From positions 232,261 through 296,260 of the forward strand of contig JAJNNY010000047.1 of the NCBI GenBank assembly GCA_022453515.1: a DNA stretch of 64,000 bases, given 5' to 3'. Below, piece by piece: positions 2,702-48,098 of this stretch. This DNA comes from Astrocystis sublimbata. Its lineage: Eukaryota; Ascomycota; Sordariomycetes; Xylariales; Xylariaceae. How positions within the stretch are numbered: the stretch's first letter is position 1; each line of letters starts with the position of its first letter. The notes below the pieces were generated by a model. That model saw nothing but the letters and a program-made list of their open reading frames with translations, was not told the DNA's origin and did no database searches. A program made the translations under genes and the position numbers.

Positions 2702-4421
2702 TTAGGCTGCAACCCGAGGGTGGTACTTCACCATCAGGTCGGCCTTATTCCATAAGATCTTGGTCGTACTTTCGCCCACCCAGTCTTGTTGCGGCTTGGC
2801 AAGTTCCCAGTCGAATAGCAGGACCATCTTGGCCACGGCAATGTGCAGCTCGAGATAAGCAAGGTTGACGCCTAGACAAGCCCGTGACCCAGTCGAGAAG
2901 GGCTGGCTTGCCTTCTTTTGGTCGTTGAATCCGCTGCCCACCCAACGCTCTGGGCGAAACTGCTGGGGATCCTGCCAGTAGCGTGCGTCGCGCGTCATTG
3001 ACAAGGGCGATACCGAGACAACCGTACCGGCGGGCACGTAATGCCCGTCGACCACGGCTCCAGGAGAGTGACGGGGCATGGGAAACGGTGCGGGCGGGAA
3101 CAATCGCATGGCTTCCTCGATGACTCCGTGAAGATACGGTAAGCTGCCTGCGGACTCGCCAGTTACCTGCTCAACGGAGGTGAAAGCCCCGCGAACCTCG
3201 TCCTGCAACTTTTTCATGCAAGCAGGGTTCTTGAGGAGGTAGTATGTCAAGGCAGATAGAGTCGTCGCTGTCGTTTCGGATCCCGCGATGATGAGGGTTG
3301 ACGACTGCGCCATCATCTCTTTCACGCTCATCGTGCCTCTGCTCAACATGTGAGAGAAGAAGTCGTCGCGGCCGGTGTCTCCCAATTGCAAACGCTTCTC
3401 AGAGAGCTCCTTGCAGAACTTCCGGTGTATCGCAAGCTTTTCGGTCGCTCCCTCGGGCATCAGGTATGGCATGAAGGGATCCAAGAGGGGAAACTTCCGT
3501 CTTATGTGAGTCATCTGTGCGTTGACGACCGAGTCGAGGATGACCTTGACCCAGACATGCGTTTCCCCCTTTTCAACCCCGCCAAAAGACTCGCCAAAGG
3601 CAAGATCACCTGAATAGAACATTAGTCGGGCAGATAGACAAAAACAGAGTGTAGTACGAACCGATGATATCGAAAGTCAACCAGTTGAACGCCTGCGCGA
3701 CATTCAGAGGCTTCTTGCCATTCTCTCCGATCCTCGCAAGTTGGTAGGTGTAGCCATCGACATATTTCTGTACGATCTCCTCCTGCTCGCGCAAAGACTT
3801 GGTACTAAACGCGTGAGAGAGCGACTTGCGCTGGCGCGCGTGGACTTCGGGATCCCTTACGCCCACAATACGCGGCGTGGGGTCGTCGTTCTCGTAGAAC
3901 TCCGTCTTCAGGAACCTCGCCTTGCCTTTGGACACATGGCCGTGAATCTCGTGGAATGCCTCTGCTGTGGCAAAAGACAGTTCATTGGGCCCAACACGAA
4001 CCACATCGCCTTGATTGGAAGTTAGCCAGAAGATCCCTGGGTGAGTTGGGAATGACAGGGCTGACCGTGTTTTTTGTGGAGCTGATCGATGATGAAGGGA
4101 AGGCGCTCGGTTGTCAATGCCCAGACTGACCACAACTAGATCATATTCAGTACTCATGCGAGACCACATCTTGGTGATGGAGGATTGGATCTTACCTCTG
4201 TGAGTGCGGCTAGTTTGGGGCCCGGGTATTTGGCTAGGGGATGGAAAAACAGGAGGTACACCGCCCGAATTGAGTAATACAAGATCACCTATAGGAAATG
4301 TTAGTCACGTTGAGTTCATACCCGCGGCGTCATTCATCAAAATGCTCATACTTACACTTGACACAAGTGCCAAAGCGCCAACTGCTGGCGACAGCATACG
4401 AGAGCCACCAATGTCAGCCAT
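2702..4421 (-). CDS. Cytochrome P450 monooxygenase
   Basis: Five exons on the minus strand (4421-4356, 4288-4196, 4135-4066, 4009-3662, 3609-2702) keep one frame and give about 494 residues, the usual P450 length. The N-terminus holds a short hydrophobic anchor and then HPLAKYPGPKLAALTE, typical of fungal microsomal P450s. Later come GDVVRVGPNELSF, the I-helix oxygen-binding motif AGSETT, the K-helix ExxR (EAMR), and the haem-thiolate loop FSTGSRACLG with its cysteine ligand. The overall pattern resembles the CYP58/CYP65 type of fungal secondary-metabolism P450s, but I cannot assign a family firmly. It would act at the ER membrane with a P450 reductase. It is the leftmost candidate member of the biosynthetic neighbourhood but lies 4 kb from the next oxidative gene, so membership in the RiPP cluster is open. 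Confidence 0.9.
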
Positions 4422-6020: not shown

Positions 6021-7497
6021 TTAGATACTCTCACACTTAACTAAATCTACCTTGTCGTTAGACAATTGACCTAGCGAGTCTTTTGGCTGGGAGGTAGGTT
6101 GCCAGGAACTTTCGGATCGGCTCGTGTCGCCTCCTCTTCGACGAAAATTTCGCGCCTTCTTCAAGAGGGACACACTTGAGGGAAGTGATCGGAGCTTGGA
6201 CAAAGGAGGGTTGACGGATATCTTGTCCAAGACCCATGCACTTCGAGGGACACATGCAACTTGAAATCCAACGCCGATTTCAATATAAGTCCAGAATATC
6301 ACAATGGATATAATCCCTGTCAACGTGCTTAGTATATGTGAAGTCTATTGAAGTCTAACTCAGGTTGTCGCCTACCTTGTTGATCACCGATTGGAAACGT
6401 CGTACCAAGTACTCTGATCGTTGGGTTCGTAATACCTTGAGTGAGTACTTGGATCCAGGGAATTAATCGGATAAGACCCGCGATAACAGCACTATTAGAG
6501 TTTAATTGTCATGTCACTTGATTCGGACGGATAATGAGCACCTACAAGCCACTAACCATGAAAATGAAAGACGTCTGGATCTTTCGCTTCCTGGACATGT
6601 TAAGCGTTCGGATCTGCACCATGTCAGGTTCAAGGACGTCTGGGTCTGTCAAGGCAGTCACGCTCGAACTTACCATCACTAGCGGCTCTGTGAAAATCGC
6701 AAGATCGAGAACCCAACTGAATACTGCACACCCAGTCTGCATTCCGAAAGTGTCGACACATGCACTCCTCAGGGAATTCCAGCTTTCCCAGCTTGCTTCT
6801 GGTGCAGTGCCACAAGCGAAAATGTCGAAGAACAAGAACACTGCCGTCCAAAGCGTGACAAGAGCAATAAGAACCCAGTTGACGTGATCGAAAGTGGTTC
6901 TGATTGCACTCCCTGCACAGGGAAGAAGATTAGACAATGTGAGTCAGGGGGGTCGGCGCCACCTAAACCTTTGAACAGTCGACGAAACAGGAAAAGAATC
7001 GTCAATTTGATAAAACCGATGGCTAGGACATGGCCAATCCAGAAAGCGTATTCAAACTTGTGTCTCAAGTCAGCATGAACCTCAAGCCTATGGAAAACGG
7101 AGGTGGGCTAACTAACTTTGCCAAGCTTGACTGATTCTATATCCACATTCGTAGGAAGTGAATGCCCGCCGATGATATGCAATTGAGTTCCTGATGGATT
7201 TCTGTGAGAATGAGACTGAATGTGAGAGGGTTTGATCAAAAGTACCTGTCACCAATGCTGCGCCGGCTGCAATAGTGAGAAACTGCTTCAAAAATAAGTC
7301 ACCGACTCGAAGTGGACGTGGAGATGGCTTATGGAACGTACGCCAGCGGGGATAATAAGTATGTCATCTATGTCGATAGAACGGCGATAATATCGCCAAC
7401 CGTACATTCGGACACCAATAGATACTAAAGCTAGGATAGGGAAGAGCAGCCCGATAGCCATCATACTCTGGGGATTAATATAACCCATGTTGACCAA
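6021..7497 (-). CDS. SAT4/rhodopsin-domain family integral membrane protein
   Basis: Fungal seven-helix membrane protein (rhodopsin-like domain family PF20684, often called SAT4 or PTH11-related). At least seven small exons can be spliced. Exon 1 contains a hydrophobic helix followed by YRRSIDIDDILIIPA, the family's charged loop with DD. Then come GTQLHIIGGHSLP, FEYAFWIGHVLAIGFIKLTILFLFRRLF, NWVLIALVTLWTAVFLFFDIFACGT with a conserved cysteine, CVDTFGMQTG, a Leu-Asp-Leu-Ala-Ile-Phe-Thr-Glu-Pro segment, IAGLIRLIPW, and FWTYIEIGVGFQVACVPRSAW. The tail after that is hydrophilic. Introns include 6955-6902 (approximate) and the one with donor GTAGGCG near 6374. The start at 7497 has a second in-frame ATG nine bases later. 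Function is generally unknown; such proteins are frequent in or beside secondary-metabolite clusters. Exact exon borders are approximate. Confidence 0.8.
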
Positions 7498-8654: not shown

Positions 8655-10008
8655 CTACACGGTAGTTACATCCTTCAAACTAGCCTCCATCATCTGTAGT
8701 GCTTCATCGCGGTGCTTCTTCACGTCAAGATCAATAATAAAGTCCCATCTTGACATAAACGACTTGAGTTTCTCCGGTTCAAGTCCCATCTCACTATCTC
8801 CCCCCATTAAAACGGTACCAATTGCTCGACTCGATTCGACAATGCGCTGAGTACGTGGGCGGCGAATCTGGTCATATACCTGCAAAGCCGACAAGGCCTC
8901 AACTGGCGTCTTTGAACGCCCGAGTAGTGCAGAGAGGATGAGACTATCCTCAATAGACATGCCACCACCAGATCCCTGCCATGGAGTCATGGAATGAGCC
9001 GCATCGCCAGTGATACAAATAGCACCTGAGACATAAGACTTGGCTTTGGGATGGTCCCAAAGATAGAAGGCTTGGTGCTCGGGTTGGGTGCATAATAGCT
9101 GCATCTTTTGTTAGTTGATGAGTTGCATACATGTGATATTCAAGCTACAGATCTGGAATCTCTCTCACCTCATTGATAGCTTTGTTAAGATGGGGCGGCC
9201 AGTCCTTGTACAGCTTCTTGATTTCTTCCGCGCTCACAGTTCGTTGCCAACCTTCGATAGACCCAGACTCGGGCAATTTGTCTCTGGAAGCGACTGCAAA
9301 TTGCACTAATTCCCCGCCGCTGAGGATGTTGTGCATCAAAAAGGTGTTTTCGCCGGCCCATCCGTACTCTCGGGCATCCTCAAGGTTGACGAGGTCTTTA
9401 CCCAGGCTGGCTTGTGCTTTATCGAATGGTTGAAGAGTCATGAGAAACCAGGAGCCGCTGTTCTGGGGAGTAGCTGTAGGGTCGTTCTCGCCAAGGACGA
9501 GCTTCCGAACAGTGCTGTGAACCCCATCGGCACCAACAACAATATCACATTCATGTGTAGTGCCATCAGTAAAGTGAAGGCAAACAGAACCATTTTGATC
9601 TATGCTCTGGAGCTTCTTTGACGCATGCATTCGTTCCCGAGGAATGTCGGCAAGCAATTCCTGCAACAATGGGACGCGGTGAACGATGCTTGTGAGACGC
9701 TGCCCTTGGGTAACATCATCCACCTCATCAGCAACCGTTCCCACTCCCGGTCCTTGAGCAAGCATGAAGCGAACACCCTTCATAGGGACGGCTCCAGCTC
9801 TTTCGAGGCATTGGGCAGCGGATGGGCCGATGAGCTCAAGGGAGGCCTGCGCGTTGCGAGCAATGCCTATCGCCATGCCGGCTTCTTTGAAGGCAGAAGC
9901 AGACTCAAAGATGTGTACATCTAGGTGGGAGAATTTGATAAGGGCATGAATCAGGGAAGCTCCAGCGAGCCCCCCGCCAATGATAGCGACTCTGATTGAA
10001 GTACTCAT
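8655..10008 (-). CDS. FAD-dependent monooxygenase (salicylate hydroxylase-like)
   Basis: Two exons (10008-9169 and 9104-8655) separated by a 64 bp intron with donor GTGAGA, branch CAACTAAC and acceptor AAAAG give 429 residues. The N-terminal Rossmann motif is VAIIGGGLAGASL, the DG motif is DIVVGADGVHSTVR, and the third FAD motif is GDAAHSMTPWQGSGGGMSIEDS. Order and spacing match class A flavoprotein aromatic hydroxylases such as salicylate 1-monooxygenase; the natural substrate cannot be read from sequence. The start at 10008 is preferred because MSTSIRVAIIGGG places the nucleotide-binding strand at the very N-terminus. It is the gene immediately beyond the 3' end of the RiPP precursor, on the same strand about 1.07 kb away, so hydroxylation of a precursor-derived peptide is a reasonable guess, but only that. 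Confidence 0.9.
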
Positions 10009-11074: not shown

Positions 11075-11387
11075 TTAATGCTTGAGAAAGAAATCAGGGT
11101 CGAATTCAGTTGTACCGTCTCTCTTGCCCTTCAAGAAGAAGTCCGGATCAAATTCAGTCGTGCCATCTCTTTTGACTTTCAGAAAGAAGTCAGGGTCGAA
11201 CTCGGTAGTTCCATCGCGACTTTCAACAACGCGTGAAACCACTTGCTGTTCTACGGGCAGTTAGTAATTTTTCCAACGACAGCTCCATTCATGTAGGTAG
11301 TCAGATGGCCTTACTAGCGATGATGGGCATCGAAGCAACAGATCCCAGAAGTAGACTTGTGATGAAGATTGACCTCATGATGGACAT
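11075..11387 (-). CDS. Putative RiPP precursor peptide with three KR-bounded core repeats
   Basis: Two exons on the minus strand (11387-11315 and 11250-11075) joined across a 64 bp intron (donor GTAAGG, branch ACTAAC, acceptor TAG) encode an 82-residue secreted peptide. Residues 1-24 form a signal peptide (ITSLLLGSVAS core). A short propeptide KQQVVSRVVES follows, then three head-to-tail units: RDGTTEFDPDFFLKVK, RDGTTEFDPDFFLKGK and RDGTTEFDPDFFLKH. Units 2 and 3 begin after Lys-Arg, the Kex2 site. The 13 repeated residues are identical in all three units although 8 to 10 of the 13 codons differ synonymously in each pair, so selection is on the peptide. This is the architecture of ustiloxin, phomopsin, asperipin and other Kex2-processed fungal RiPP precursors. 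Two UstYa-type genes lie divergently next to it. The core has no Tyr but three Phe, one terminal Lys and acidic residues. A second in-frame ATG at 11378 could be the start. Confidence 0.88.
11104..11235 (-). repeat. Three tandem 48 bp coding repeats (core peptide units)
   Basis: Three tandem in-frame units encode the identical segment DGTTEFDPDFFLK. The nucleotide copies differ almost only at third codon positions, while the amino acids do not. The junction residues vary (VKR, GKR, H-stop). Boundaries are approximate to a few bases. Confidence 0.85.
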
Positions 11388-12245: not shown

Positions 12246-13300
12246 ATGTCAAAAATGAACAGACAGCCGTTGCTGGATGAAGAAACTGACAACGTCAACC
12301 TTTGTGAATCTGACCCGGCTCATCCAACCCGCCCTGACCGATTTTGCAACGCCGCACTGATCACGAATGCTATATTGCTGACAATTTGCCTTCTTTTGGG
12401 GTTCACTGTACTGTTGCTTCCGAGCTCGAGTAAGAAGCAGCAGGAGGGCTTGAGGGGCAGTATCAGCGACCCTTACTGTATGTACAAACTTGACCCGTTA
12501 CACCCGATACTAATCCCTCCATAGCCCCAGAAAACACCATCGTTGAGTATGAGTACCGCCAAATGATAGGGAACGATACTCGTTTCACAGGCCATCCTGG
12601 ACCAGAATGGGAGAAGTCTATGCACGATGTGATGACAGGTAAGTATTTGACAAAGTGGATTGCTATCTCTAATCAGAATGGCAGGCACCCTTATACGAAT
12701 ATCCGATGATGAACGGAAACTGCTCAACTCAAACTCCATTCCCTTGAAAGATGGCGGATACGCTGCAGGGCTAGGGGTAGCGCATAACCTTCATTGTATT
12801 GTAAGCAGCCTATCTCAATGACCTAACATCGATGCAGTGATGTTGGTAACCTGGGATGGTGACTAATGAATCGAGAACAGAAGCAGATCAAGAAGTTTCT
12901 ATATCGCGACCAATTCTATGCCGAGATAGATCCGAATGGAGCGGACTTCGCGTATCTTCTTTCTCACGCTGGTAAGTTTTTTGTCCTTTCGTCACGTCAA
13001 ACTTTCCATAATTAACGTCTTCTGGTATTAGATCACTGCCTGGATTTCCTACGCCAGAGTATCATGTGTCATCTAGATTTCACGGTTTACACGCTATATT
13101 GGGGCGAGAACACGGAAAAGCCAACACATCGTGCACCAGGTCTACAGAAGTGTGTCAAATGGGAAACGTTACATGGCTGGATGTCAGGTAGGCAAGCCCG
13201 AACAGATATGCTAGTAGGGCCGTGAAGAGTTTGCAAGCATATGACACACCCAGTTGCTGTGTCTAAATTGAATAGCCTCACAGTCTGGAATGAGTTCTAA
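12246..13300 (+). CDS. UstYa/DUF3328 family oxidase, copy 1
   Basis: Six exons (12246-12477, 12525-12638, 12685-12800, 12881-12971, 13032-13187, 13254-13300) keep frame through five introns and give about 251 residues. One transmembrane helix (LITNAILLTICLLLGFTVLLL) follows a cytosolic N-terminus, leaving the remainder lumenal. The two family HxxHC motifs are present: HNLHC near the middle and HADHCLDFLRQSIMCHLDFT further on, followed by the conserved KCVNWETLHGW region with the paired cysteines and tryptophans. In ustiloxin, asperipin and cyclochlorotine pathways such proteins carry out the oxidative ring-closing step, probably with a metal held by the histidines. It is the closest gene to the precursor in the divergent direction, which supports it as the cyclase. 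The acceptor of intron 2 was chosen (12684) because the alternative at 12676 leads to a stop. Confidence 0.88.
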
Positions 13301-13817: not shown

Positions 13818-14865
13818 ATGGCTTCAGATATGCTAGCAGAAAATGCCCCCTTCCTGTGGAATGGGTGTTCCTCAAACTCTGAAGAGAAGGCTAAGAAAAG
13901 GCAAGGAGGCCTCTTAGAACGTGGCAATTACAGGGCTGTTTGGATTTTCCTCGCTTTTCAATTGATATTCCTTGCATTCAACTTGGGTTTCCTCATCTTC
14001 AATACTATACCTATACCGGTCAAGTATCAAGCACAGCACACGTCTGCCCTTGAAAGAGCATATTGTGAGTGTACCCGAGGCTCTGAGCTAACTTGCATTA
14101 CCCATATTGATGAAAACCCTTGCAGCGCCGGCAGACCTAGCTCTCGAGTATGTTGTTCTCGAAGACTCAGATCACAAGCACGGTGCATCTCCATATACCG
14201 GAGAACCTCGTGCTGAGCTTGACGAAGCCTGGTCTAAGCTACTACGGTGTAAGACTTGCGTCATTACCCATCTGAAATTTCAATGTCGAACTGAACGATA
14301 CAGCTACTCTTTTGAGAATGACCAAGGAAGAAATGGTGAAAATGAACAAGACTTCTCTCAGCCTTCTAGACGGAAGTGGTTATGTTGGCTACCTTGAAAC
14401 CTTTCACATGCTACACTGCGTGGTAAGTGTATTGTCTGCATTGATCAAGCACATATTAGTTACCTGCTAAAGACATTTAGAAACGTATATATCAATCCCA
14501 TCATCAGGAATACTATCCTGAGCAGCAACGTGACGGCGCCTTCACTGATGCCCACTTGTGTAAGCAGTTCATCTTGAGAGAGGCCCTGAATGCCGTACTA
14601 AGTGGTTATAGACCATTGCCTAGATGTACTCCGCGAAGGTATCATGTGTAATGCTGATTTGTCAATCAACACATTGTTCTGGGAGACCCCGACCAAAGTG
14701 CAAGGTGCAAGGCCAGGATTGCGAAAATGTGTCAATTGGGATCTACTTCAGTCATGGGCCGAGGACAGAACACTTACGGCGAAAGATAGAGAATCTTTCT
14801 TGGCTACCTTGGTTGTTCCATTTGAGAAGCCTGGGAGCATTGGTCCTATTGATTTACTCTTATGA
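13818..14865 (+). CDS. UstYa/DUF3328 family oxidase, copy 2
   Basis: A second UstYa-like gene in the same direction, spliced from about five exons (first exon 13818-14067, last exon ending at 14865). A single transmembrane helix (VWIFLAFQLIFLAFNLGFLIF) lies near residue 45. The first HxxHC motif is HMLHCV, and the second reads HLYHCLDVLREGIMCNADLS across an intron boundary. The KCVNWDLLQSW segment matches that of copy 1. The exon 2/3 junction was placed at acceptor TTTTGAG near 14313 because the earlier CAG acceptor breaks the frame before MTKEEMVKMNKTS; this should be verified with transcripts. Pairs of UstYa-type proteins (UstYa plus UstYb) are usual in dikaritin clusters. The copies share motifs but little sequence outside them, so the duplication is old. 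Confidence 0.85.
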
Positions 14866-15297: not shown

Positions 15298-17092
15298 TCA
15301 ACCGCCCATCTCCAATTGCATCTGTATTCTCTCACGCTTCATTAGTAATGCGCAAAGGATCAAAATCGCCCCAGAAACGATGATGAGTATGTAGGTATCA
15401 TTGATGGCGGTGACAAGTATTTCGAGCGCAGGACGCTTGACTTCAGGCGGCGCCGTCTGCAGCACTACACTTCTGGCTCCAGCAATAGCCGCTGTGACAT
15501 CCTCCTCTGAGAAGCCAGCTGGAACTAGGATAGCGAGCAGCCTCTGACGTGCGACGGTCTGGAAGATGGTGTTGCAGATGGCAAGGGCCACAAGTATACT
15601 ACCTTGCTGTCCGATGTTGATGAATTGAATAGCCTCAGGTATCTCGTCAGGCAGGACCTTGCTGGGCACGATCGAGTAGGCGGCTTGGAACGCCGTCTGA
15701 CCAACACCGACAAGGATCGAGTAGCCATATATCTTGGCGTTGGCAATATCAATCGATGAAGTATAGAGCAGTGCGCCGCCGATAGTGGTCAACACACCGC
15801 TGAACAGAAACCAGGGCATGTAATAGCCCCAGCGTACCATCAAGATCCCGTTGAACAGAACGCCAACAACATAGAAGACGACGAAGGGGAGCAGCCGCAC
15901 AGCGGTCTGCTTGCCATCTTCATTGCGGACCAGGGAGTAAAAGAGCGAGAGGTAGTATATGATGACATAGAGTGCGCCGACTAGCGCAGTGCAGGAGAGT
16001 AACAACAGCACCATCGTCCGGTCGCGGAGAAACTGCACAGGAAAGAGCCTGTCTCTCGAGCTTGTAAATACTGCAAAATGTTGCGTTATCGAGAATGCGA
16101 CCGCAACAACGCCGAAAACAACGTAAAGCGTGATCATGCGGCCGTCAGTCCAACTCCAAGTTGAGCCACCGAACGTGAAGATCAATGCGAATGTTGTGTA
16201 TATGCCGAAACTCAAGATAGTTCCTAACCAGTCAAGCGATTGGAGCCTTTTAGCTAGGGGGACGCCCGGTCGAGGGTGCATGGACGGAAGTAGGAAGAGG
16301 TATATCGGGGATATCACGGCAAAGATGAACAGGTTGAGGTAAAAGGCCTGTTTTCATGTCGCGTCAGTAAACGATGATCTTGAACTGATAGGCTGCTCGC
16401 AACATACCCATCGCCAGCCTGAAGATGAAGTGTCGGCCAACGCGCCCCCTATCACCGGACCAAGGATGACTCCGACGCCGTAGACTAGAATCGCTGCTGC
16501 CATGTAGATGCTTCGTTCCTTCGGTGTCGTCAAACGCTGAAGCATGTTGATATTCCTGGAAATCTATTAGACCAGTTCACATGATCAGTACGGGCAAAAG
16601 CAAACTCACCCTAGATACATGCCCGCTCCGCCAGCACCCGCCCATACACGCCCAACAATCAAGGCGTCCATCACAGGCGCGGCACCACAGAGCGCGCTGC
16701 CAGCCGCGAACATTGTCAATGACCCGAAGTAGAGCCATTTGTTGTCGAAGATGGCGTACGCCTTGCCCCTGTATTTGCGTTCAAATTAGATCGTATGCTT
16801 CACCTTCGGCTTAGGGAGCGTCGTCTTACAGCGGCAGGATCACAGCAAATGCACCTAGGGGGAACCCTATGCCCAACCAGCCGAGCTTGTTGACATTGCC
16901 GAGATCGCTGATTATTGGGGCTTGGATGTCGGCGACGATGGTGTTGTCGAGTCCGTACAGGAGGTTGCATGAGAACACGGCGATGCACACTAGAAGCCAA
17001 CGCAGGCCGGTGACCGATCTTTGGACCGCGTCACTTGAGGCTGGAGACAGTTGCTGGGGCGTTGATACCGAATCCTTGACAGATGGCGACAT
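15298..17092 (-). CDS. MFS transporter, DHA2-like (14-helix) exporter
   Basis: Four exons on the minus strand (first from 17092, last ending at 15298) give a protein of roughly 540 residues. Conserved major-facilitator features include LYGLDNTIVADIQAPIISDLG at helix 1 (motif D1-like LDxTIV), WLGIGFPLGAFAV, the loop GKAYAIFDNKW with FGSLTMFAAGSALCG, the GR(V)WAGAGGAGMY segment, and ERSIYMAAAILVYGVGVILGPVIGGAL, which is the antiporter motif C. The C-terminal half is uninterrupted (16317-15298), with at least seven hydrophobic helices. DHA2-type exporters commonly serve fungal metabolite clusters, for example UstT in the ustiloxin cluster. Location just beyond the two UstYa-type genes supports a role exporting the RiPP product. 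Start at 17092 was preferred over an upstream ATG because MSPSVKDSV gives a normal cytosolic tail. Confidence 0.9.
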
Positions 17093-18163
17093 TATGGATC
17101 TTGGTCTTAAGATACACGAGCCTGGCGGTTGCTGAGCATGTAACTGATGAGAATCATACAAGTAATGCAAGCCAAGCTGAACTTTAACTAGGAATCTAGG
17201 ATCAACTCGACTTCACACCGTCGTGCTAATTACGTATTTATTCAATGCTTTACGAGACCTGCTGTAATACTATTCGCAACTGAATGCGGAGAGATTTCAT
17301 ATCATGCTACATATCATTTCACAATGTCCACAGTGTAGTCGATTTCAAAAGGGCCATGTGTTAAGTCCGATACCATCTGTGGGGACACTCTGAATGCCCC
17401 TTATGATCATGGCGGCAAAGCCTCATGTCAGAACTCCATCGCTGATATATGGAGCACCGCCTATCTACGGATCCATTAATGGCCTTGCATTACTGCTGAG
17501 ACCAACTATAGGTTGTCTTGTTTGGCCTGAGAATATGTTTGTTCTGGATATCTTGTGCCATTCGTTTCGGCGTTAACACAACTTCATTCGATGCTGACAT
17601 ATGTCGAGGGCTTGCTCGCTAGCATCACATTCCACCGTGATTCTGTCTGGTGGAGCTTTGCGATACTACTTAATTTTATTTCCCAAATGTCCGAGAATTA
17701 AGAGTACAGAAATGATAAGGACTGATAAGAAATACAAAGCCCTTTTACTTCGTCAGCCTGGGTGCTTAACCGTCATACATCCCGAAACTTTGCGACCTCT
17801 CTCGACACAGCACGGCCTAACAAATATGCTACTAAGCTCATGCATCTTAGAGGCACCGACACTATGCATGATGTAAGCCGCATCGAAGCAGCGGTCAACA
17901 GTAGTCCTGCTCAAGTTGACGCCGCAGTTCAAGTGCTTCAAATCAATTCCAGGACATTAAGATCGCCCCTATTTACATTCATCGGCTTTAGGCGTTAGGC
18001 GATAAGATCTGCAAAGCATACCACCTGACATGTGGTTCAGATGATTTTACATCAGGTTAGCAATGTGACATATTTATTGAGCAAAACATTCTTGAGAAGC
18101 CGAGTTAAATGAGATATGACCCATTAGGATAATTTCTCTATTCTCTGTCAATTATGTTGTCTC
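17093..18163. other. Intergenic, no gene supported
   Basis: About 1.07 kb upstream of the transporter and downstream of the sialidase-fold gene. Short frames on both strands near 17600-17990 have no recognisable content. This is a plausible right border of the RiPP cluster. Confidence 0.5.
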
Positions 18164-19919: not shown

Positions 19920-20777
19920 CTAGTCGCTCGAGGGCAATGTGCTGTTTGCATCACCGGCAATATCAAGTGTGTTAATTGCTTGTGTGAAGAAGTTCCAGGT
20001 TTCGCCCGGGGCGAAGTATTGGCCGTTCGAATCTCTGGGGTCCGGCACGTGGTCACCACCGTGTGCAATCCACCAGACTGGGGTACCAGCTCTGCAGCTA
20101 TACTCTGTCTTGATGTGGTTTCCAGCACCTGGGCCAGGCTCTGGTGCGTTCTTCGATTGACATCCATTGAGCTGTAGGAATTTGTCCCGGAGCTGGCGGC
20201 CCAGGCCAATGTTGAGCACGCTATCCACAACACCGTGGATGCCAAGGTATGGAACCGGCTTGTTGCCGCCATCGCATCCGCTGAGCTGTGCGCCCGAAAT
20301 GACAGCGACCGCACGGAAGACGTCGGGTCGGGAGCAAGCCATAGAGTACGACATCGCACCGCCGTAACTCCAGCCTGTTGCAAAGATCTGCTTCTCATCG
20401 ACGCAGAGAGAGTCCTTGAGGAGATCGACCATCTGGTCCGTGAACTTCACGTCCTCGCCACCGTTGTTGGCCCAGCCATTGCCTATTCCTTGCGGTGCAA
20501 CAAAGATGGCGGATTCTTTGGCAAGATCGCGGAGGCCGTAGTAGCCCGGGGCCACGTTGTTCATTGTGCCATCACGCCAGTGGTAGCCGAAGATCAACTT
20601 GTAGGGCGTTGAGGGATTGTAGTTTGCAGGGACCTGCACGATGTAGTCGCGGTTCCTGCCGTTGACGTTCATGGACTTTTGCCCGCTTGACATGGGGCTT
20701 TTACCGCAGCCGGCACTAGCGGCAGAGACATTGCCAACGGCTGCTGCAAGCAGCACTAGTGCGGTAGAGAAGATCAT
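19920..20777 (-). CDS. Feruloyl esterase (CE1-type, FaeC/LpqC-like), secreted
   Basis: A single-exon gene of 285 residues. Residues 1-19 are a signal peptide (IFSTALVLLAAAVGNVSA). The alpha/beta-hydrolase core is clear: FGYHWRDG near the oxyanion region, FVAPQGIGNGWANNGGEDVKF, the nucleophile elbow GWSYGGAMS with serine, the acid in GIHGVVDSVLN, and the catalytic histidine in GGDHVPDP followed by an aromatic-rich C-terminus (FAPGETWNFF). This set matches fungal feruloyl esterases of type C/D, which cleave ferulate esters from plant xylan and pectin. Paired cysteines suggest disulfides. It sits between the sialidase-fold protein and a GH12 enzyme, all secreted and on the same strand, although not in an operon since each has its own upstream region. 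Confidence 0.88.
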   Translation of the reverse strand: MIFSTALVLLAAAVGNVSAASAGCGKSPMSSGQKSMNVNGRNRDYIVQVPANYNPSTPYKLIFGYHWRDGTMNNVAPGYYGLRDLAKESAIFVAPQGIGNGWANNGGEDVKFTDQMVDLLKDSLCVDEKQIFATGWSYGGAMSYSMACSRPDVFRAVAVISGAQLSGCDGGNKPVPYLGIHGVVDSVLNIGLGRQLRDKFLQLNGCQSKNAPEPGPGAGNHIKTEYSCRAGTPVWWIAHGGDHVPDPRDSNGQYFAPGETWNFFTQAINTLDIAGDANSTLPSSD

Positions 20778-22211
20778 GGTAACTCAGACGTGGGGTGAAA
20801 AGAGAGACGCCAGTGATGGTTAGGGACTATTGATTGCTCGCCGTTTTGAAGGATGGGATGACTAGAGTTCATATATAGCTAGCGAACTGCGGGATCTCGG
20901 TCAAAAAACCGCCACGAACCGGCGCCCGGGAGCAACAGGCATACTTAGGATGCTTGTTTCCAAGGCTTAAACCATGCTTGTTCTTTAGTCACGCATTAAG
21001 GTGCTCGCGGCGTGAGAAGTCCGTGTTGAACGACGAGGGCAGCATGATCGACCATGTTTACCATGTTGTTTCCAGTTGTGGCAGACTCGGAGAGAACTCT
21101 ATCGGCGACCAGCTGTGCAAGGGTGCGACCCGCAAACCCGGATTGATCCCCGAATTCTGCTAGCTAGTACCGTACCGACAACTTGAGCGCGGGTAGAGTT
21201 ACCTGATCGGCATTCACTGCTGTTAGTCTAGTCTTGGCGCGCCACAGTCGAGCTTCAACTGTTGCTACTATACTCGAGATAACGGAACACAGGACACTGC
21301 TTAAAATACGCATAACTAGCACAACGATATGTTCAATTAATAATGTTCAAGGTGTAGAGAAGTGAGGATGCATGCAGGTCTAACACTTGTCTCGAAATGC
21401 ATGTTCTGATTACTTACACGTAAGTATTTGATTGACTAGCTTGTGGCTGATTAGGTCAGGGTTCGCAGATAAATCCGGGGATGATTTCATGCGCAGCTTA
21501 GCATAGAAGGTAATTCCATGGCAACGGACTATGCGCTTGACACAATCGGAAAATTGCAGAGCGGAAGAATCCCGTCTGCTGGAGTGATTCTTTCCCACCA
21601 ATTGCTCCGTGCTGCCAGGGGAATATCTGTTACGGCTAAAAACGCCTAGAGCCATGTCCGCTAGTGGTCCACTAATCTACGGGAGGCTGGCTCCGGGCCA
21701 AGACCACACGTTATGATGCCGATCTTAATTGCCGGTGAGTCTTGCTTGCAATGCCTTGCATCGGCTGTTGATCTTAGATTCTGATTCCACCTGTACCATC
21801 GTGTCGTATTGCCGAACTTGGATAGCATCCCAACATAGCTCACTTGTTGCTTAGGGCGTTGGCTTGAATCTCACGCCCCTTTTTAAGTTGAGCACTAGTA
21901 GCTACTTACCTAATGTTTCTATTCTTATTTCATGTGACAGAAATCCTGACGAAAAGTAAGACATAATGCTTCTGGGCAAGCTGCTTATTGATAAAAGTCA
22001 AGAATAAGATATAATTAGACTTCGAAGTTCCGAACCTAAACAGTTGCTACCTAAGACTTGATAATATCTTCCCGATGCGAATAATAGCATGCAATCTGCT
22101 CACGCTAAGCCCGTGTGGCGCTGCAAGCTCTCTTCTCGTTCTCGTTCTCAGCCACATGACCACAGCCAGATAGAAAGCAGGCAAGCTTAGTTGCTGTGAG
22201 TCGTAGATGGG
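20778..22211. other. Intergenic, no gene supported
   Basis: About 1.4 kb. It contains the esterase promoter, including a TATATA run near 20870. Frames at 20954-21163 and 21410-21843 have no supporting features. Confidence 0.5.
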
Positions 22212-24085
<1,874 letters not shown>

Positions 24086-25945
24086 TCAGGCGGAGTGCTT
24101 CCATTGCATTGTCTCAGCGTCGAGGTTCTCGCTCTTTGCTCTGTTCCAATCGTTACGAATAACTTCCGCCCTCTTGGCATCTCGGGGGAGTGGTGCGGCT
24201 AGGAAACCTTGCGTGACTTTAGTAAAGTCAGGAACAATCTCATTTCCGTTGTTGTCGAGGGGCCTCTTGAAGTCAAATGCCCACAAGAGTCTCGAAATTC
24301 CCAAGAACAAGTTCTGGTCCGCCATGTGAATCCCAGGACAGATTCGACGCCCAGCTCCGAAGAAAAACTGGTCTCGTTGAGATACGTCTAGGTTGATAGC
24401 GGACTCGTAAAAGTTCTGCTTGTTGTCCCTAAAATGGTCGGGATCAAACTGTTGCGGATTAGGATAACGAGCTGCGTCGCTTTGTATTGCAAAAACGTTG
24501 TTTACAAGCACTGCTTCCTTGGGCAATCGATATCCCAAGTAGTGATCTTCCTGCAAAAGCGCATGGGGCATCTCGCCCAATATAGTGACTGGCATCCAAC
24601 GAAGCGACTCCTTGATGCATCCACGTACATACTGCAACTTCGGTTCATCCTCAGGCAAAGGCATTCTGTCTGCGCCCACTACTCGGTCAATTTCAGCCTG
24701 AGCGCGCGCCTGTACTTCTAGAAAGACGAGCATGGCGCATAAAAATCAGATGAGAGTATTCGCCGTTGTATCAGTTCCGGCTTCGAGGAGTGTTCCGGTT
24801 ATATAAGCCGCGAAGTCATCGTCGAAACCGTGTTTCTTCTGTTCTTGGACAAGCCCGACACAGAAAGAAGGGTTTGGCTTCTCCAGAGACAACACACTGG
24901 CTTTGGCTGTATCCCAATGGTGCCTGAATAAGGCCTTCTCTCGCCGATGATTTGTTATGGCATGTTGCTTTAGGGGCAGTACCCATGTTGGAAGCATCTG
25001 CAGTATGGGCAGGTAGTCGAGCAGGGCAACTAGCCCTGTCTGTGCGAGCAAAAGAAATTCGTCGAACACCTTGAAGAGCACCTTGAAGTGGGCATCTTCG
25101 AAACTCGGAACTCGGCACTTGGACACTCACTTAATGCTCAGCATGGATTTCAAATCGCAGACCAAAAGATACCTAGGTTCCTAGGAATCGAGACATTTGT
25201 TACCCAAATGTAGTGGTAGTCATCAGAGAGTTTGAGTACCGACGAACGTGTGAAACGTAGTTGTCGGGACCATTGAGAATATCATGCATCATTTGTTGGT
25301 TTTCGAGTTCCTGATATGGTCCGAAGGCCTGCGAAGCACGGACGTTAAGTAGGTCGTGCATAATGCGTCGAAGCTTTGTGAGATGCTCAGCTAGTGATCC
25401 CAAGGGAGTAAAACGGGTGATGTACCATTCTCCATGTTCGTCCGTATTATCGCTGATGGATGATCAGTGGTAATATTCGGATGGCGATTGTGAATTGTAA
25501 GACTTACTATCTATCATTAGAACTCTGAGTCCTCCGCTTGCTACTTTTTGCCCTATGTACAAATCCATTCTGTCGCTTAATATGGAACTTCTCTTATCCA
25601 TAATGTCTCTTACTGCATTGTCGCTAGAGAGGACGATCATGGTTTTGCTCCCCATCATCAGGCTATACACCGGTCTGTACTCTTGCGCCCATTTCTGAAA
25701 CTGCAAGTGCAAATCATGTTTGGGTATCTATATGTAATTAACCACAATGACAAACGGTTTGCTTTAGTGTGTTGGAAAGTTTCAATCATTGGCCTTACTA
25801 GATGGAGGTTTCCCATAATTGGGATGGTCGGTGGTCCTGGCGGAAGGTCTGCTGGTCGACGACCAATTTGTAGGAGCCTCCGAGAAAGAATAAAAAATGA
25901 AAGAACAGTCACAGATACTATAATCTGAGTTAGAAAGTAAGCCAT
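24086..25945 (-). pseudogene. Cytochrome P450, probably inactivated
   Basis: A whole P450 can be traced over about six exons: an N-terminal anchor then DLPPGPPTIPIMGNLHL, IPKHDLHLQFQKWAQEYRPVYSL, SSILSDRMDLYIG, LRRIMHDLLNVRASQAFGPYQ, the I-helix GTDTTANTL, the K-helix ESLRWMP, PERF-like QFDPDHF, and the haem loop FGAGRRICPG. Two stop codons interrupt this path. TGA at 24748-24746 stands where the family has Trp just after GTDTTANTLI, with FLCAMLVFLEVQ continuing in frame. TAA at 25449-25447 directly precedes YGRTWRM, the usual C-helix WxxxR region, and the exon junction there is also out of phase. Both would be explained by single transitions (TGG to TGA, CAA to TAA). The first is not near any alternative splice site that I could find. 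A sequencing error is possible but two independent ones are less likely. Confidence 0.6.
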
Positions 25946-26343
25946 ATCTTTTGATATTTTTTGCCTGAACGAAAGTGCTACAGTAGTGATTCAGAACAAT
26001 GAGAAAGAATTGGGAGCATGATTTATCGAAGCACACCCATGTAGGCTTTTATTTTCGAATTCATTATTGAACAGCTAACATTATTGTACCCCAGCGTGTT
26101 AATCATGTACCCATTTTGAGTATCATTGTTAGTATGGTAAGACTTGTAATGCAGGCCGTGAAATTGTTATCTTTCCGACAGCGGAATGCTTTTAAAAGGG
26201 TACAGGTTTGTCTGACAGGCATTATGACCCGTGTCCGCTCCCCAAACCATGCCTTGGGTATTAGATGAACAAACTCCTTTTCGGTCGAGATGCGCCGGGT
26301 ACCAAAGTATCGACTCCCACCCCTGTGTTATGTGCTCCTCTTC
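25946..26343. other. Intergenic
   Basis: About 400 bp between the P450 relic and the HET gene. No gene is seen. Confidence 0.45.
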
Positions 26344-41493: not shown

Positions 41494-42875
41494 CCATGTG
41501 GGACCCCTCAACGGACCACCCCCCTGAACGGAACAGCTAAAACTGCCCAAACTAGCCAAATCGCACTTATTTCAACCACTTGCAGTTCAATCAATACTAC
41601 TCGTATTCAGCTGGAAAATAGGTCAAATTGAAGCTAATTGGCTAATTAATCTAAATATCTGGTCGGCACACGGGTCTGACCGCCTGAACGGGTCTGTAGA
41701 TCCCTCGGCGCAAAGGTAACTTCAGCCAAATCGGGCTCTTCCACCTTATCTACTTCGTCTGTAATAATACTACCTTCAACGTCCTCGAGGCCTTCAAAAG
41801 CCTCATTTTCGTTTTTAATAGCTGTAGCTAGTATCTTAGGAATTGTCTGAAAGCCCTTATTTGGATTAGGCACTTTCTTACGGCGCTTGGGCTTTATGTG
41901 TTCGATCTGAGCCTCCAGAGCCTCGATTCTTTTATCTTTAAGGACAGACTTGGTAGTTAGCCTTTTGTAGGCTTTTGCGGCCTTCTCGAAGCTCAGGCGC
42001 GTTGTAGGAGATTTATTATAGCTAAATAGCTTAATAGATCGTGACGTTTTTAGTGTTATAACCTTACTAGCTTCGGCTTTGTTTATTTCAGGGCCTTCTA
42101 GGCCTGAATTGGGGTTTGCTTATAATTCAGGGTGGTTTAGAGCCTTTCGGCGGCTTATGGGCTAGTTTCTAGTTGTTCTAAAGCCCGAAAGTATGTTCTT
42201 TTTCGTAAAGGCGTTGTTTCGAGCCCTAGAATAGCACCTAATGAAGTTGATCTTATTAACTGGCGCCGCGTTTGTTAAACTAGCTAACACTTATAAATGC
42301 TTCCTATAGTAGGCTTTTAGGGCATTATATAGCCCGTTGTTAAATAGCTATAGGCCGTGTGAAATATAAATAGGCAGAAAACAGAGGTTGATATTGTTTA
42401 GGTATATAAGCTTTATAAATTCGTCCTAAATTAGGGGTTAGACTTTAATATATAACTATAAAAGCAGAAAAAATCGCAAAAATAAGGGAGCAAGCTTATA
42501 AAAGTATAACTCTTATACCTATTAAGGATTAAAAATACTATTTCTAACTAGTTATAGCCTCGTACTTTATTAGCTTAAGGCAAAAAAACCTTATTAAGCT
42601 ACTTTTCTACGATCTTATTTGAACTCTAGCTATTTTTTAAACATATAAAATACTAATTAGCGATTTTCCTAAATTCTAAAGTAAACTACTGCTTTTAAAG
42701 GTCTTTTTTTAAAAAATAATACCTGGTTTTAGTACTTTTCTAGCTACCAAGATAGCTTTAATAAAAAAGGTCTAACTATAGTTTTAATTGCTTTTTATTA
42801 AGGTTTTTTTTGTTTTTAAAAAGCCTAAAACAAGGCTATTAAGGCTTCCAGGGGCTAGTTAGCTTAAATACGAAG
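41494..42875 (-). mobile_element. Truncated, RIP-damaged pogo/Fot1-type DNA transposon (left copy)
   Basis: Minus-strand translation of 42,430-41,646 in shifting frames gives recognisable pieces of a DDE transposase: LNNINLCFLPIYISHGL (LNNIxLxFLPPHTSHxLQPLD in intact relatives), LYNALKAYYRKHL, NKINFIRCYSRARNNAF, and an intact tail SVLKDKRIEALEAQIEHIKPKRRKK (fragment) ending with the 75-residue open piece to 41,646. Stops and A/T-rich codons where C/G are expected fit repeat-induced point mutation. The end near 41,494-41,530 (GGGACCCCTCAACGGACC...) is a candidate terminal inverted repeat after a TA, the usual target site. The element's other end is missing: it stops at the TTAGGG repeats at 42,876. 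Confidence 0.72.
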
Positions 42876-42905
42876 TTAGGGTTAGGGTTAGGGTTAGGGT
42901 TAGGG
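42876..42905 (+). repeat. Telomeric repeat (TTAGGG)5, proximal array, left arm
   Basis: Five perfect TTAGGG units, G-rich strand on plus and pointing toward the palindrome centre, directly joined to the truncated transposon at CGAAG. Orientation is that of a chromosome end lying to the right. Confidence 0.97.
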
Positions 42906-43368
42906 TTAAAAGATGAAATGGGGAAGGTTAAAGTCGCAGAAACTGATGAGTAAACCAGGAATACCGACTAGTTCTCGTCCTAAGATAAGATGCTAGTTTC
43001 GCTTATGGTATAGCTTATCAGGGCAAGTGTCAGTTTGGAATGGGAAGTCCTCGGCTTATATACGCCTAGCGCGGAATTAGAAGAATCTCCAGGGAACATC
43101 CCTAGGGATTGTTCTAGAGCCGGTTAGGCAGTAACGCGGGGACTTACCACTTCTGCTTCCATATAATTGGCGGGAAATCGTTTCCGGGGAACCGAGTTGT
43201 GCGGGGCTAAGCGGGGACAAAGCCCGAAGCAAAAACCGAGATACGAACACGGATACGAAAACGAGACAGCCGAAAGTTCCTCTGTATCAGAGATACAAGA
43301 TCTCTGAACATAACTCCGAGCCCCCTCGGAGTTAGGGTTATCCTAAAGGGGATAATAGGTGGAAAGGG
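42906..43368. other. 463 bp spacer between telomeric arrays, left arm
   Basis: No coding capacity is seen. Its telomere-distal end holds a perfect hairpin, AACTCCGAG-CCCC-CTCGGAGTT (43,312-43,333), and a second imperfect one around CAGAGATACAAGATCTCTG. It could be a short non-autonomous telomere-associated element or the tail of an older insertion. Compared with the right-arm copy it differs by scattered transitions. Confidence 0.6.
43312..43333. repeat. Perfect 9 bp stem hairpin, left arm
   Basis: Stem AACTCCGAG / CTCGGAGTT with a CCCC loop. It lies 36 bp from the next TTAGGG array and is unchanged in the mirrored copy (47,641-47,662) although flanking bases differ, which may mean a structural role. 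Confidence 0.8.
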
Positions 43369-43398
43369 TTAGGGTTAGGGTTAGGGTTAGGGTTAGGG
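43369..43398 (+). repeat. Telomeric repeat (TTAGGG)5, distal array, left arm
   Basis: Five perfect TTAGGG units followed by TTTAGG. This is the junction with the 3' end of the reverse-transcriptase element, which is read from the minus strand here. Confidence 0.97.
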
Positions 43399-45486
43399 TT
43401 TAGGTTTTGAACCTAGAACCAGTAACCCCTTCCTGAAAACCTTCACCTTAAGCGGATGGTTGGAGGAATTCCTATATAACAGGAGGGTAATAGATAGACA
43501 GGTAAGTAGTAACGACAATCACCTCAGTCCGCAGACAATAATAGCAAAGTGCGTGTTGTGATTGGAACCTAGGTTCTGGACTGTATACTTTGTAGTAGGG
43601 ACAGTGCAGCAACGAAGGGTAGAGGATCCTATGTTATAAATAAACCACTGAAGTTGTTAAAAAGGGGTTATTTTATAAACAATCCCACATGTCTTCCTTG
43701 GGTTACTAGTGGAGGGACAACTTCACACCTTGCGGTATTACTACCTTTTTATTTTTATAAAAGGTTTAACTTCCTTCGACGGTTATAGTTCCGTTTGTAC
43801 CCAGATCCAATAGGGTAGTTTTATTCCAAATCGAGATTAAGTCGAAAAGACTTGTATTTCGACTGAGGCTTTAAAGCAGCGGTTGTATAAGTAAATTAGG
43901 CAGCTCTTCCTGGATCTAGCAACCTTGTGCTATTCGAGAGACCTCTCCAATGTTTATATATTCCTAAACTGGGTTATACTAGCCTAATAATATAAGTGGC
44001 GCGCTTGTTTCTTTTTTAGTTTTGAATCGTAGAAAATGTGGGCAGTTGTTATAGGATATAAGGGAGAACTAGTAGTTTAGCTTTTTAGGAGGGTAACCTC
44101 TCCTACGTAGAGTACCGTAGAATTCGTTTCGGGTTTTTGTAAAGAACCCGGGGGTAGAGCAAAGTACGGTGTATTGAAATAGCTCAGCTTTAACAAAGCC
44201 CTTTTTAATATAAAAAGGATGAGCAGACGACTAGGAGATATAGAGTCGTTTATTTAGATGTTTTCGGAACAAACGAGTCTAAAAAGGTTATAACCCAGGC
44301 TATCTTTTTATAATTTTAATATCTAAAAAAGAGTCTCGAATATCTGAAATATTCCAAGTAATAAAGAGTTTAGCCGTATATTACTAGCGATTAAGCTAGG
44401 AGCAAAATTTTTCGATTTTTTTTCGGGTCCCTTGGAATAAAGTAAAAATATCGTTAATATATCTATTATAAAGCAGGACTCCGGGGTATATAGATATACC
44501 GTTCTAACGTTCGAAACTAGCGGTATAAATATTAGCGAGGACGGGAGTATAGGAAGTTCCTATTGCTAGGCTATTTTTTTGCTAAAACTTCGTTCCTTAG
44601 TATTTAAAGTAATTATGTTTTATTATAAAGTGGACTATTTTAGAAATAGTGGCACTTTTAATAGCGTTTCTAAGCTAATAGTAGTCCCAAGATTTTCGTA
44701 CTATTTAGGAGCATCTTTTAACTGGGATATTAGTATAGAATGACATAATGTTGCTGGTAAGGATCTAAAGTGGTTTGCCAATAAAAACGGAAACTTTTTT
44801 AATATTATTTATAATTTCTTTTAATAAAAAAACCACCTATAGAAAATGCTTAAAAAAGGGTTAAAAAAGATAGTTAACGATTATTGAAACTTAAGAGGTA
44901 ACCCAGGAGTGCGAAGGGACTATGGGTTTTAGTATCCAGGTTTCCTTATATACTTTAGGAATTATATAAAACTAAGGCAATTCGGTTTTAGTACCTTTTT
45001 CGATAAATTTCGTTATATTATTAGGGAGGTTCTAAAAAGGGAGTTCCGCTATTAACTTTATAAAAAGGTCTTTAATAGGTATATCCGTAATATATTAATA
45101 GATTTTAGTATCTCCTAACATATTTAGATATTTCGAATTATACTATTTGGCAGGGAATACTACAAGTCCTAAATTTTTATTAGTAAGCTTATACATTAAG
45201 TAATTTTCTTAAAGGTAGTCGCGAATAGCTAACTAATTAAAAAATTAGCCTGCTTGGTAAGAAAGTTTTTCGTTCTGTAGCTTTTAACTAACTTGAGAGT
45301 CGAATATAATCAAAACAGCTTTAATACTTTATTCGATTACTGGAAAGGCGAGCAATAGTTACTATTTAGTATTCTTAATATAAAACTTTGCTTTAAAATT
45401 ATCGGAAGGAGAGTTATAAAAAAGCTATCTAAAACGAACCACATAACAAAAAAATTCTTTACGTTTTTAATATTCTATTTAAAAGG
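43399..45486 (-). mobile_element. Penelope-like reverse-transcriptase element at telomeric repeats, RIP-degraded (left copy)
   Basis: Minus-strand counterpart of the right-arm element described at 45,487-47,575. The RT core is recognisable around 44,750-43,920: YTNIP strand, then a heavily mutated G-A-MG-type region (44,590-44,540), the YxRYINDI motif near 44,450 (family YIDD, Asp to Asn), and the RRRGYP motif further on. This copy carries more A/T substitutions than the right-arm one: for example the right arm retains Trp-Gln-Lys codons TGG CAG AAG where the left has TAG CAA AAA. No frame longer than about 40 residues survives. Its 3' end touches TTAGGG repeats. Confidence 0.75.
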
Positions 45487-45498
45487 CCTTTTAAAATA
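45475..45498. other. Palindrome centre
   Basis: The self-complementary run CTATTTAAAAGG / CCTTTTAAAATAG marks the joint of the two arms. One A is extra on the right side. No telomeric repeats, no spacer and no unrelated filler sequence are present, so the arms meet inside the 5' part of the RT elements. Confidence 0.9.
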
Positions 45499-47575: not shown

Positions 47576-47605
47576 CCCTAACCCTAACCCTAACCCTAAC
47601 CCTAA
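47576..47605 (-). repeat. Telomeric repeat (TTAGGG)5, distal array, right arm
   Basis: Written CCCTAA on plus, five perfect units. Mirrors 43,369-43,398, and abuts the 3' end of the RT element. Confidence 0.97.
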
Positions 47606-48068
47606 CCCTTTCCTCCTGTTATCCCCTTTGGGATAACCCTAACTCCGAGGGGGCTCGGAGTTATGTTCGGAGATCTTGTATCTCTGATACGGAGGAACTT
47701 TCGGCCGTCTCGTTTTCGTGTCCGTGTTCGTGTCTCGGTCTTTGCTTCGGGCTTTGTCCCCGCTTAGCCCCGCACGACTCGGTCCCCCGGAAACGATTTC
47801 CCGCCAATTGTGTGGAAGCGGAAGTGGTAAGTCCCCGCGTTGCTGCCTAACCGGCTCTAGAACAATCCCTAGGGATGTTCCCTGGAGATTCTTCTAGTTC
47901 CGCGCTGGGTGCATATAAGCCGAGGACTTCCCACTCCAAACTGACACTTGCCTTAATGAGCTACACCACAAGCGAAACTAGCATCTTATCTTAGGACGAG
48001 AACTAGTCGGCATTCCTGGTTTACTCATCAGTTTCTGCGACTTTAACCTTCCCCATTTCATCTTTTAA
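47606..48068. other. 463 bp spacer between telomeric arrays, right arm
   Basis: Counterpart of 42,906-43,368 with the same length and the same hairpin (47,641-47,662). It differs at scattered positions mostly by transitions, the right copy generally keeping G/C where the left has A/T. Confidence 0.6.
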
Positions 48069-48098
48069 CCCTAACCCTAACCCTAACCCTAACCCTAA
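48069..48098 (-). repeat. Telomeric repeat (TTAGGG)5, proximal array, right arm
   Basis: Five perfect CCCTAA units, mirror of 42,876-42,905, bordering the truncated transposon. Confidence 0.97.

What the first reader, a model, noticed from the sequence alone, without database searches (positions are those of the whole stretch)
11075..11387. Apparently new Kex2-processed RiPP precursor with three identical core peptides
An 82-residue secreted peptide contains three copies of DGTTEFDPDFFLK separated by KR sites, a design used by ustiloxin, phomopsin, asperipin and similar precursors. Comparing the three coding units, 8 to 10 of 13 codons differ in each pair and every difference is silent, so the peptide itself is under strong selection. 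The core does not match YAIG, YVIP, FYYTGY or GLKLAF cores that I know of. The precursor is small, intron-containing, minus-strand and easily missed by gene callers; a plus-strand shadow frame covers the same bases.
Basis: partly seen in the sequence, partly recalled or inferred. Interest (0 to 1): 0.95.

Follow-up and report, generated by a model that had tools for sequence, protein, structure and literature searches.

The report
New fungal modified-peptide gene cluster
A small fungal gene encodes three identical copies of a short secreted peptide next to two genes for copper enzymes of a kind known to chemically modify such peptides; it belongs to a widespread peptide-precursor family that I found undescribed in the papers I could search, and its product is not known.

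Summary
In detail: a minus-strand two-exon gene (11075-11387) encodes an 82-residue protein with three DGTTEFDPDFFLK copies whose codon differences (10, 8, 9 of 13 per pair) are all silent. Gene callers did not miss it: it is an annotated hypothetical protein of Astrocystis sublimbata. It belongs to a family of 54 proteins found here with a near-fixed DG(T/S)TEFD(P/A)D plus a variable 3-4 residue tail; the core is therefore probably 12 residues, the K being spacer. Two UstYa (DUF3328) genes lie beside it. A second cluster in the genome repeats the gene order UstYa-B, UstYa-A, precursor, FAD-monooxygenase, seven-helix protein; a third locus pairs a divergent precursor with one UstYa. Eight further precursors share a contig length with a UstYa-A homologue. 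Best explanation: a Kex2-processed, UstYa-modified secreted peptide (dikaritin-like RiPP) with a tyrosine-free core. Gene structure and linkage in this genome are shown; processing, chemistry and function are inferred. New, uncharacterised member of a known kind.

The parts
11075..11387 (-). precursor gene: exon 1 11387-11315, intron 11314-11251, exon 2 11250-11075; 82 aa (or 79 aa from the ATG at 11378)
   Evidence: identical to public protein P0001
11075..11250 (-). exon 2 with three DGTTEFDPDFFLK units preceded by SR, KR and KR
12246..13225 (+). UstYa-A, 5 exons, 248 aa; two HxxHC motifs (HNLHC, HADHC); one predicted membrane helix
   Evidence: model; end derived from the 248-aa length; PF11807, 3.5e-37; identical to P0030
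13818..14865 (+). UstYa-B, 5 exons, 273 aa; two HxxHC motifs (HMLHC, HLYHC)
   Evidence: my splice model, no identical public protein sought; PF11807, 1.3e-39
8655..10008 (-). FAD-dependent monooxygenase, two exons; top-scoring paralogue lies in the second cluster on contig C19, with one on C165 nearly as close
6021..7488 (-). fungal rhodopsin-domain (PF20684) protein with seven hydrophobic segments, 8 exons in my model, 354 aa; its central exon has one other match in the genome, in the C19 cluster
15298..17212 (-). transporter-like gene (MFS_1 24.2 bits on one ORF, below the cut-off of 33.4); neighbour without a match in the C19 stretch, membership doubtful

Best explanation
The gene is the precursor of a ribosomal, secreted, UstYa-modified peptide, that is a dikaritin-like RiPP. 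The signal peptide takes the 82-aa protein into the secretory pathway; Kex2 cuts after KR (and at the single R before copy 1); trimming of the K-x-KR spacer leaves copies of DGTTEFDPDFFL. Two membrane-anchored copper oxidases (UstYa-A and UstYa-B) then oxidise the peptide by cross-link, desaturation or hydroxylation. The core has no tyrosine, so the Tyr-O ether of ustiloxin is impossible; Phe (as in victorin) or the Asp-Pro-Asp stretch (compare the desaturations in phomopsin) are the likeliest targets. The FAD-monooxygenase probably tailors the product. Shown: gene structure, repeats, silent-only divergence, intact UstYa motifs, linkage in this genome, a second cluster of the same gene order. 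Inferred: cleavage, core ends, all chemistry, role.
For: Precursor anatomy. Family with a near-fixed nonapeptide: 130 units match at least 5 of 9 positions in 54 of 54 proteins, with R directly before 127 and a dibasic pair before 99. Tails are identical within a protein in 73 of 95 unit pairs but in 302 of 7165 pairs between proteins, so the tail is a maintained part of the product rather than drifting spacer. UstYa pair with PF11807 and two HxxHC motifs each, the binuclear copper site in CctR (passages of PMC12435403). In the own genome all three precursor loci are UstYa loci. UstYa-A's nearest relatives there are the C19 and C103 proteins, UstYa-B's is the C19 protein. C19 repeats the five-gene order. 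Elsewhere 9 precursors, the window's included, share a contig length with a UstYa-A homologue, plus Podospora by locus tags.
Against: No transcript, mass spectrum or knockout was available. Contig sharing outside this genome rests on equal contig lengths and locus tags, not on DNA I could read. Of 42 precursor clusters on contigs of 10 kb or more (my count), 12 are linked by these tests and 30 are not: in Triangularia, Poronia and Cladorrhinum the listed UstYa-A homologue is on another contig, and for 27 nothing could be said. 13 of 43 multi-copy proteins have tails that differ between copies. The window's core has no Tyr, while 65.6% of UstYa-linked repeats contain Tyr in the KEP survey. No peptidase was recognised inside the five-gene block, though it was not scanned exhaustively; the nearest is a Peptidase_S9/esterase-like ORF at 19920-20783. 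Kex2 plus trimming of basic residues alone would leave K-V or K-G at the C-terminus.
Confidence: 0.8

Rival explanations
1. A linear secreted signalling peptide (pheromone- or hormone-like KEP) that is only cut out by Kex2, with the UstYa genes acting on something else.
For: Same precursor logic as alpha-type pheromones (abstracts of PMC7329392 and PMC6339444). A seven-helix protein gene accompanies the precursor in both the window and C19 clusters, as a receptor would.
Against: In the KEP survey the genes of almost all KEPs annotated as mating factors or pheromones (three exceptions) lack UstYa genes nearby (abstract); here UstYa is present at three of three precursor loci of the genome. The rhodopsin-domain family is very large in this genome (163 matches, exon by exon, with 150 of 221 candidates scored), and I know of no proof that its members are peptide receptors. 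No seven-helix match was found at C103 in the comparison.
Confidence: 0.12
2. Compatible with the main reading but different on the core: the conserved nonapeptide is a recognition or follower segment, and the final product is a short piece around the variable tail.
For: Six of the nine positions are the same residue in at least 124 of 130 units and a seventh in 124, while the tail takes 37 forms. Dikaritin cores are freed by Kex2 and further cluster-encoded peptidases (passage of PMC9233826).
Against: No peptidase was recognised in the five-gene block (not an exhaustive search), and most tails are only 3 residues long.
Confidence: 0.3
3. A plus-strand repeat gene (shadow frame SGSNSVVPSLL..) is the real gene.
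For: A plus-strand open frame also shows three repeats after KK.
Against: The homologues, the two paralogues, the intron and the silent-only divergence follow the minus-strand frame. The plus-strand frame was not searched for homologues on its own.
Confidence: 0.01

Closest known systems
Dikaritins (ustiloxin, phomopsin, asperipin-2a): KEP precursor plus UstYa homologue(s)
   Same: Signal-peptide-like N-terminus, tandem repeats after basic sites, UstYa genes next door
   Different: Core unlike the YAIG, YVIP and FYYTGY cores named in the finding and without Tyr; 1-4 copies per precursor in this family; no tyrosinase recognised nearby (not an exhaustive search); product unknown
Victorin
   Same: Cyclised through a C-terminal Phe and an internal Leu (passage of PMC9233826), so a route without Tyr exists; some family tails here are LAF, as in GLKLAF (that GLKLAF is the victorin core is recalled)
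   Different: Different core and organism; victorin is chlorinated; the window's own tail ends in Leu; no evidence of either modification here
[quoted passage not shown]
   Same: Three repeats of at least 8 residues; two are preceded by KR, the first by SR
   Different: Not among the motifs named in the sections read; supplementary tables were not readable; members with 1-2 copies fall below the survey's threshold of 3
Ascomycete alpha-type pheromone precursors
   Same: Signal-peptide-like N-terminus and Kex2-spaced repeats
   Different: UstYa genes adjacent; no W in the window's repeats; no pheromone domain among Pfam hits for 5 members

Membership tests
KEP (Kex2-processed repeat protein) | N-terminal signal peptide | tested here: inconclusive
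   Hydrophobic N-terminus; the columns at window residues 19 (mostly A, S in the window) and 21 (P) are nearly invariant in 23 members, as at a signal cleavage site; no signal-peptide predictor was available
KEP (Kex2-processed repeat protein) | three or more repeats of at least 8 aa between KR/RR/KK/RK | tested here: inconclusive
   three 13-aa units, two preceded by KR, the first by SR; criterion from the methods of PMC7329392; whether the survey's program would count the first unit is not known
Dikaritin (KEP cyclised by UstYa homologues) | UstYa (DUF3328) gene in the cluster | tested here: met
   two PF11807 genes at 12246-13225 and 13818-14865
Dikaritin (KEP cyclised by UstYa homologues) | product is a cyclised peptide made from the precursor core | not testable with these tools
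   needs LC-MS/MS and gene deletion
Dikaritin, ustiloxin/phomopsin type | Tyr in the core (EDYxI) | tested here: not met
   no Y in the window's core; EDYxI from PMC6339444 section 10
Dikaritin, ustiloxin/phomopsin type | tyrosinase in the cluster | tested here: inconclusive
   none among the ten proteins or pieces scanned; no search for tyrosinase was run
UstYa / DUF3328 | HxxHC(x)nHxxHC motif and one membrane helix | tested here: met
   HNLHC..HADHC and HMLHC..HLYHC; helix 30-57 in the UstYa-A model (mean pLDDT 66.7; UstYa-B not modelled); definition from passages of PMC12435403
Alpha-type pheromone precursor | pheromone domain | tested here: not met
   no pheromone Pfam hit at E <= 1 in 5 members

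The most novel reading that the evidence does not exclude
A modular peptide system: DG(T/S)TEFD(P/A)D is a built-in recognition tag read by a dedicated UstYa pair that oxidises tyrosine-free cores, the 3-4 residue tail is a naturally diversified warhead, and the co-inherited seven-helix protein is the cognate receptor by which the fungus senses its own modified peptide.
Probability: 0.1. Interest if true: 0.85.

Novelty: new member of a known kind. Interest (0 to 1): 0.55.

Why it matters
Only five dikaritins had been reported by 2022 (passage of PMC10512285), although 1758 UstYa-linked KEPs are predicted (PMC7329392 section 7). This one is unusually tractable: a family found in Sordariomycetes, Eurotiomycetes and Dothideomycetes (classes recalled for the species listed), with a fixed motif and natural tail variants that serve as a ready substrate series, a small gene set repeated in one genome, and a core without tyrosine, which forces the question of what UstYa enzymes do on Phe, Pro, Asp or Leu.

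Tried and rejected
PF16833 (EKLF_TAD2) on the precursor: 24.8 bits, below Pfam's cut-off of 25, taken as chance. A fifth own-genome match, on C127 (E 0.118, 29%), lies in an unrelated frame, and C127 has no UstYa match; dropped. MFS-like transporter as cluster member: no counterpart in the 28.8 kb of C19 examined. The FMO is not exclusive to this system: a paralogue on C165 (73% over residues 1-186 and 54% over 183-280, two pieces of 279 and 111 bits against 399 for C19) lies on a contig without a precursor or UstYa match. For UstYa-B the runners-up behind C19 are tied: UstYa-A, C118 and C103 at 44-46 bits; no tree and no reciprocal search were made. No solved structure matched UstYa-A by sequence at E <= 0.01. 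The UstYa-A model was moderate (pTM 0.49) and no fold search was run.

My first count of the motif used a pattern that fixed or limited seven of nine positions, so its invariance was partly by construction; I recounted with a loose rule. The strict pattern missed 9 units, including both of P0024.

Literature: core strings gave 0 papers. Of the papers, PMC7329392 was seen as outline with abstract, sections 6, 7 and 13 and a word search; PMC6339444 as outline with abstract and sections 10 and 16; PMC12048977 as outline with abstract; PMC9632046, PMC10512285, PMC9002641, PMC12186524, PMC12435403, PMC8403587 and PMC9233826 as passages. Type G-6 of PMC7329392 was considered as a match, since Aspergillus, Monosporascus and Hypoxylon are in both lists, but most of its genera are absent from my hits and its profile is described as high in Tyr; not settled.

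The first splice model of the seven-helix gene was out of frame; one acceptor was wrong, and a second model with the acceptor suggested by the C19 gene is open throughout.

Full report
What is there. The minus strand at 11387-11075 encodes an 82-residue protein from two exons (intron 11314-11251, 64 bp, GT..AG) with three identical DGTTEFDPDFFLK units. The copies differ pairwise at 10, 8 and 9 of 13 codons and never in protein. Twelve of 13 codons vary, with at least 15 base changes, all silent, for which a neutral expectation gives roughly 2.5e-11 to 3.6e-9. The identical protein is annotated as hypothetical protein F4808DRAFT_266811 of Astrocystis sublimbata, on a contig of 296260 bases, the length of the contig C132 that holds the window. 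Homologues begin at the residue aligned with M4, so 11378 may be the real start.

A family. Two searches of 5.8 billion proteins gave 54 family proteins at E <= 1 (29, 25 more, which scored only the 7994 candidates sharing most words). Source names include Xylaria and relatives, Podospora and relatives, Cytospora, Diaporthe, Aspergillus, Paecilomyces, Pseudocercospora, Cercospora, Septoria and Zasmidium; others are unnamed metagenome proteins. Counting every 9-mer that matches DGTTEFDPD at 5 or more of 9 positions gives 130 units in 54 of 54 proteins: D1 128, G2 127, T4 124, E5 124, F6 126, D7 125, D9 125; position 3 is T in 91 and S in 26, position 8 P in 85 and A in 32; R directly precedes 127 and a dibasic pair 99. 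In an alignment of 23 members the first unit is invariant at R36, D37, G38, E41, F42, D43 and D45. In 121 units that fit a stricter pattern the tail before the next basic residue is 3-4 (once 5) residues in 37 forms; it ends in F 63, L 35, Y 18, H 4, E 1, and 93 of 121 units lack Tyr. Copies per protein by that pattern: 1 in 10, 2 in 20, 3 in 21, 4 in 2. The units are not independent: many are copies within a protein or in near relatives, and some proteins are fragments.

Core limits. In 21 of the 121 units the protein stops right after the hydrophobic tail with no K, and in Aspergillus ellipticus the K is part of the KR site. I therefore read the core as DGTTEFDPDFFL and K-x-KR as spacer. In support, tails are identical in 73 of 95 within-protein pairs against 302 of 7165 between-protein pairs, whereas the spacer residue is constant in 5 of 13 proteins with two or more such spacers; against, 13 of 43 multi-copy proteins have differing tails. 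Single-unit members exist (for example P0087, P0088, P0091), so repetition is not essential.

The cluster. Two UstYa genes follow on the plus strand, 12246-13225 and 13818-14865. Both have two HxxHC motifs, which in CctR form the binuclear copper site of a membrane-anchored enzyme whose main domain is proposed to face the lumen (passages). The UstYa-A model has a membrane helix at 30-57 and helices at 149-161 and 175-197 that carry the motifs, at moderate overall confidence.

Repetition in the same genome. A precursor search of the whole genome gave five matches: two are exons of the window gene, one is P0003 on C19, one is P0075 on C103, and one on C127 is taken as chance. C19 carries, in order, UstYa-B, UstYa-A, precursor, a glyoxalase-type gene, an FAD-monooxygenase and a seven-helix gene; the window has the same order without the glyoxalase and with UstYa-A turned round. 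FMO identity is 64% and 58% over its two exons, but a C165 paralogue outside any such cluster is nearly as close. The window's central seven-helix exon has only one other match in the genome at E <= 0.001 among the 10 candidates scored, the C19 gene at 72%, although the genome has 163 exon-level matches to that domain family. The spliced protein has 354 residues, seven hydrophobic segments and a PF20684 hit of 6.6e-31. C103 has a two-copy precursor (DGHSEFDADLAIL, DGASEFDADLAIL) and one UstYa gene, with no FMO or seven-helix match in the 9.9 kb compared. All three precursor genes have a 64-bp phase-1 intron. In the genome UstYa-A is nearest to the C19 and then the C103 protein; UstYa-B is nearest to the C19 protein, with UstYa-A, C118 and C103 about equal behind (exon-level scores, no tree). 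A simple repeat scan of the 20 UstYa loci (the window's first 26.9 kb and 19 stretches of 9.9 kb) plus the C127 stretch, 224020 bases in all, found this family only in the window, C19 and C103, and one unrelated repeat precursor on C136; an 18-kb control stretch gave none. It would miss single-copy or split precursors. Window and C19 are probably duplicates, so the three loci are not three independent events.

Linkage in other fungi. Locus tags are consecutive in X. longipes (584093/584092; that tag style need not follow position) and Zasmidium (002748/002749) and close in Xylariales sp. (125880/125910); Podospora has 404500 and 404496 in sister species. Equal contig lengths are an inference of identity, and on megabase contigs they do not show adjacency. 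With the two own-genome paralogues and Podospora this makes 12 of the 42 precursor clusters on contigs of at least 10 kb (my count from the tables). For 3 of the other 30 (Triangularia, Poronia, Cladorrhinum) the listed UstYa-A homologue is on another contig; 27 give no information. The UstYa-A list itself holds only 40 cluster representatives at E <= 1e-20, and several of its species have no precursor in my list.

How it works, and rivals. Most likely a dikaritin-like RiPP: secretion, Kex2 cleavage, trimming, copper-dependent oxidation by UstYa-A and UstYa-B, possible tailoring by the FMO. Tyr-ether chemistry is impossible on this core. Victorin, cyclised through a C-terminal Phe (passage of PMC9233826), shows that a route without Tyr exists, and UstYa proteins also desaturate residues in phomopsin (passage of PMC10512285). 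The main rival is an unmodified signalling peptide; the seven-helix gene keeps that alive, and a modified self-sensing signal is the boldest reading not excluded.

Novelty. No open paper held contains the ten core strings tested. The 2020 KEP survey would probably have detected three-copy members in genomes then available (criteria), so the family may sit unnamed in its supplement, which I could not read. I rate it a new, uncharacterised member of a known kind.

Noticed in passing
window 26964-64000: The stretch is its own reverse complement at 98.87% identity (37082 aligned positions, 328 mismatches, 84 gap openings), centre near 45482, and reaches the end of contig C132: a giant fold-back palindrome, probably an assembly artefact, possibly a real terminal palindrome.
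   Followed up: partly
L019 about 7079-7350 (contig C136): Another UstYa locus carries a different repeat precursor with KR-spaced units containing FKTSGAYDEDINAADAKEVLG, with a Tyr.
   Followed up: no
window 42001-50000: AT-rich centre of the palindrome (GC down to 0.30) with mirrored ORFs on both sides.
   Followed up: no
contig C165:131802-133121 (L036): A third close FMO paralogue without a precursor or UstYa match on its contig.
   Followed up: partly
window 19920-20783: Minus-strand ORF with a Peptidase_S9 match (6.4e-08) and weak esterase matches, beyond the transporter-like gene; read as esterase-like from memory, but a processing peptidase is not excluded.
   Followed up: no
window 2702-4304 and 24086-25990: Two cytochrome P450 genes lie to either side (PF00067 on one ORF each); no evidence that they belong to the cluster.
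   Followed up: no
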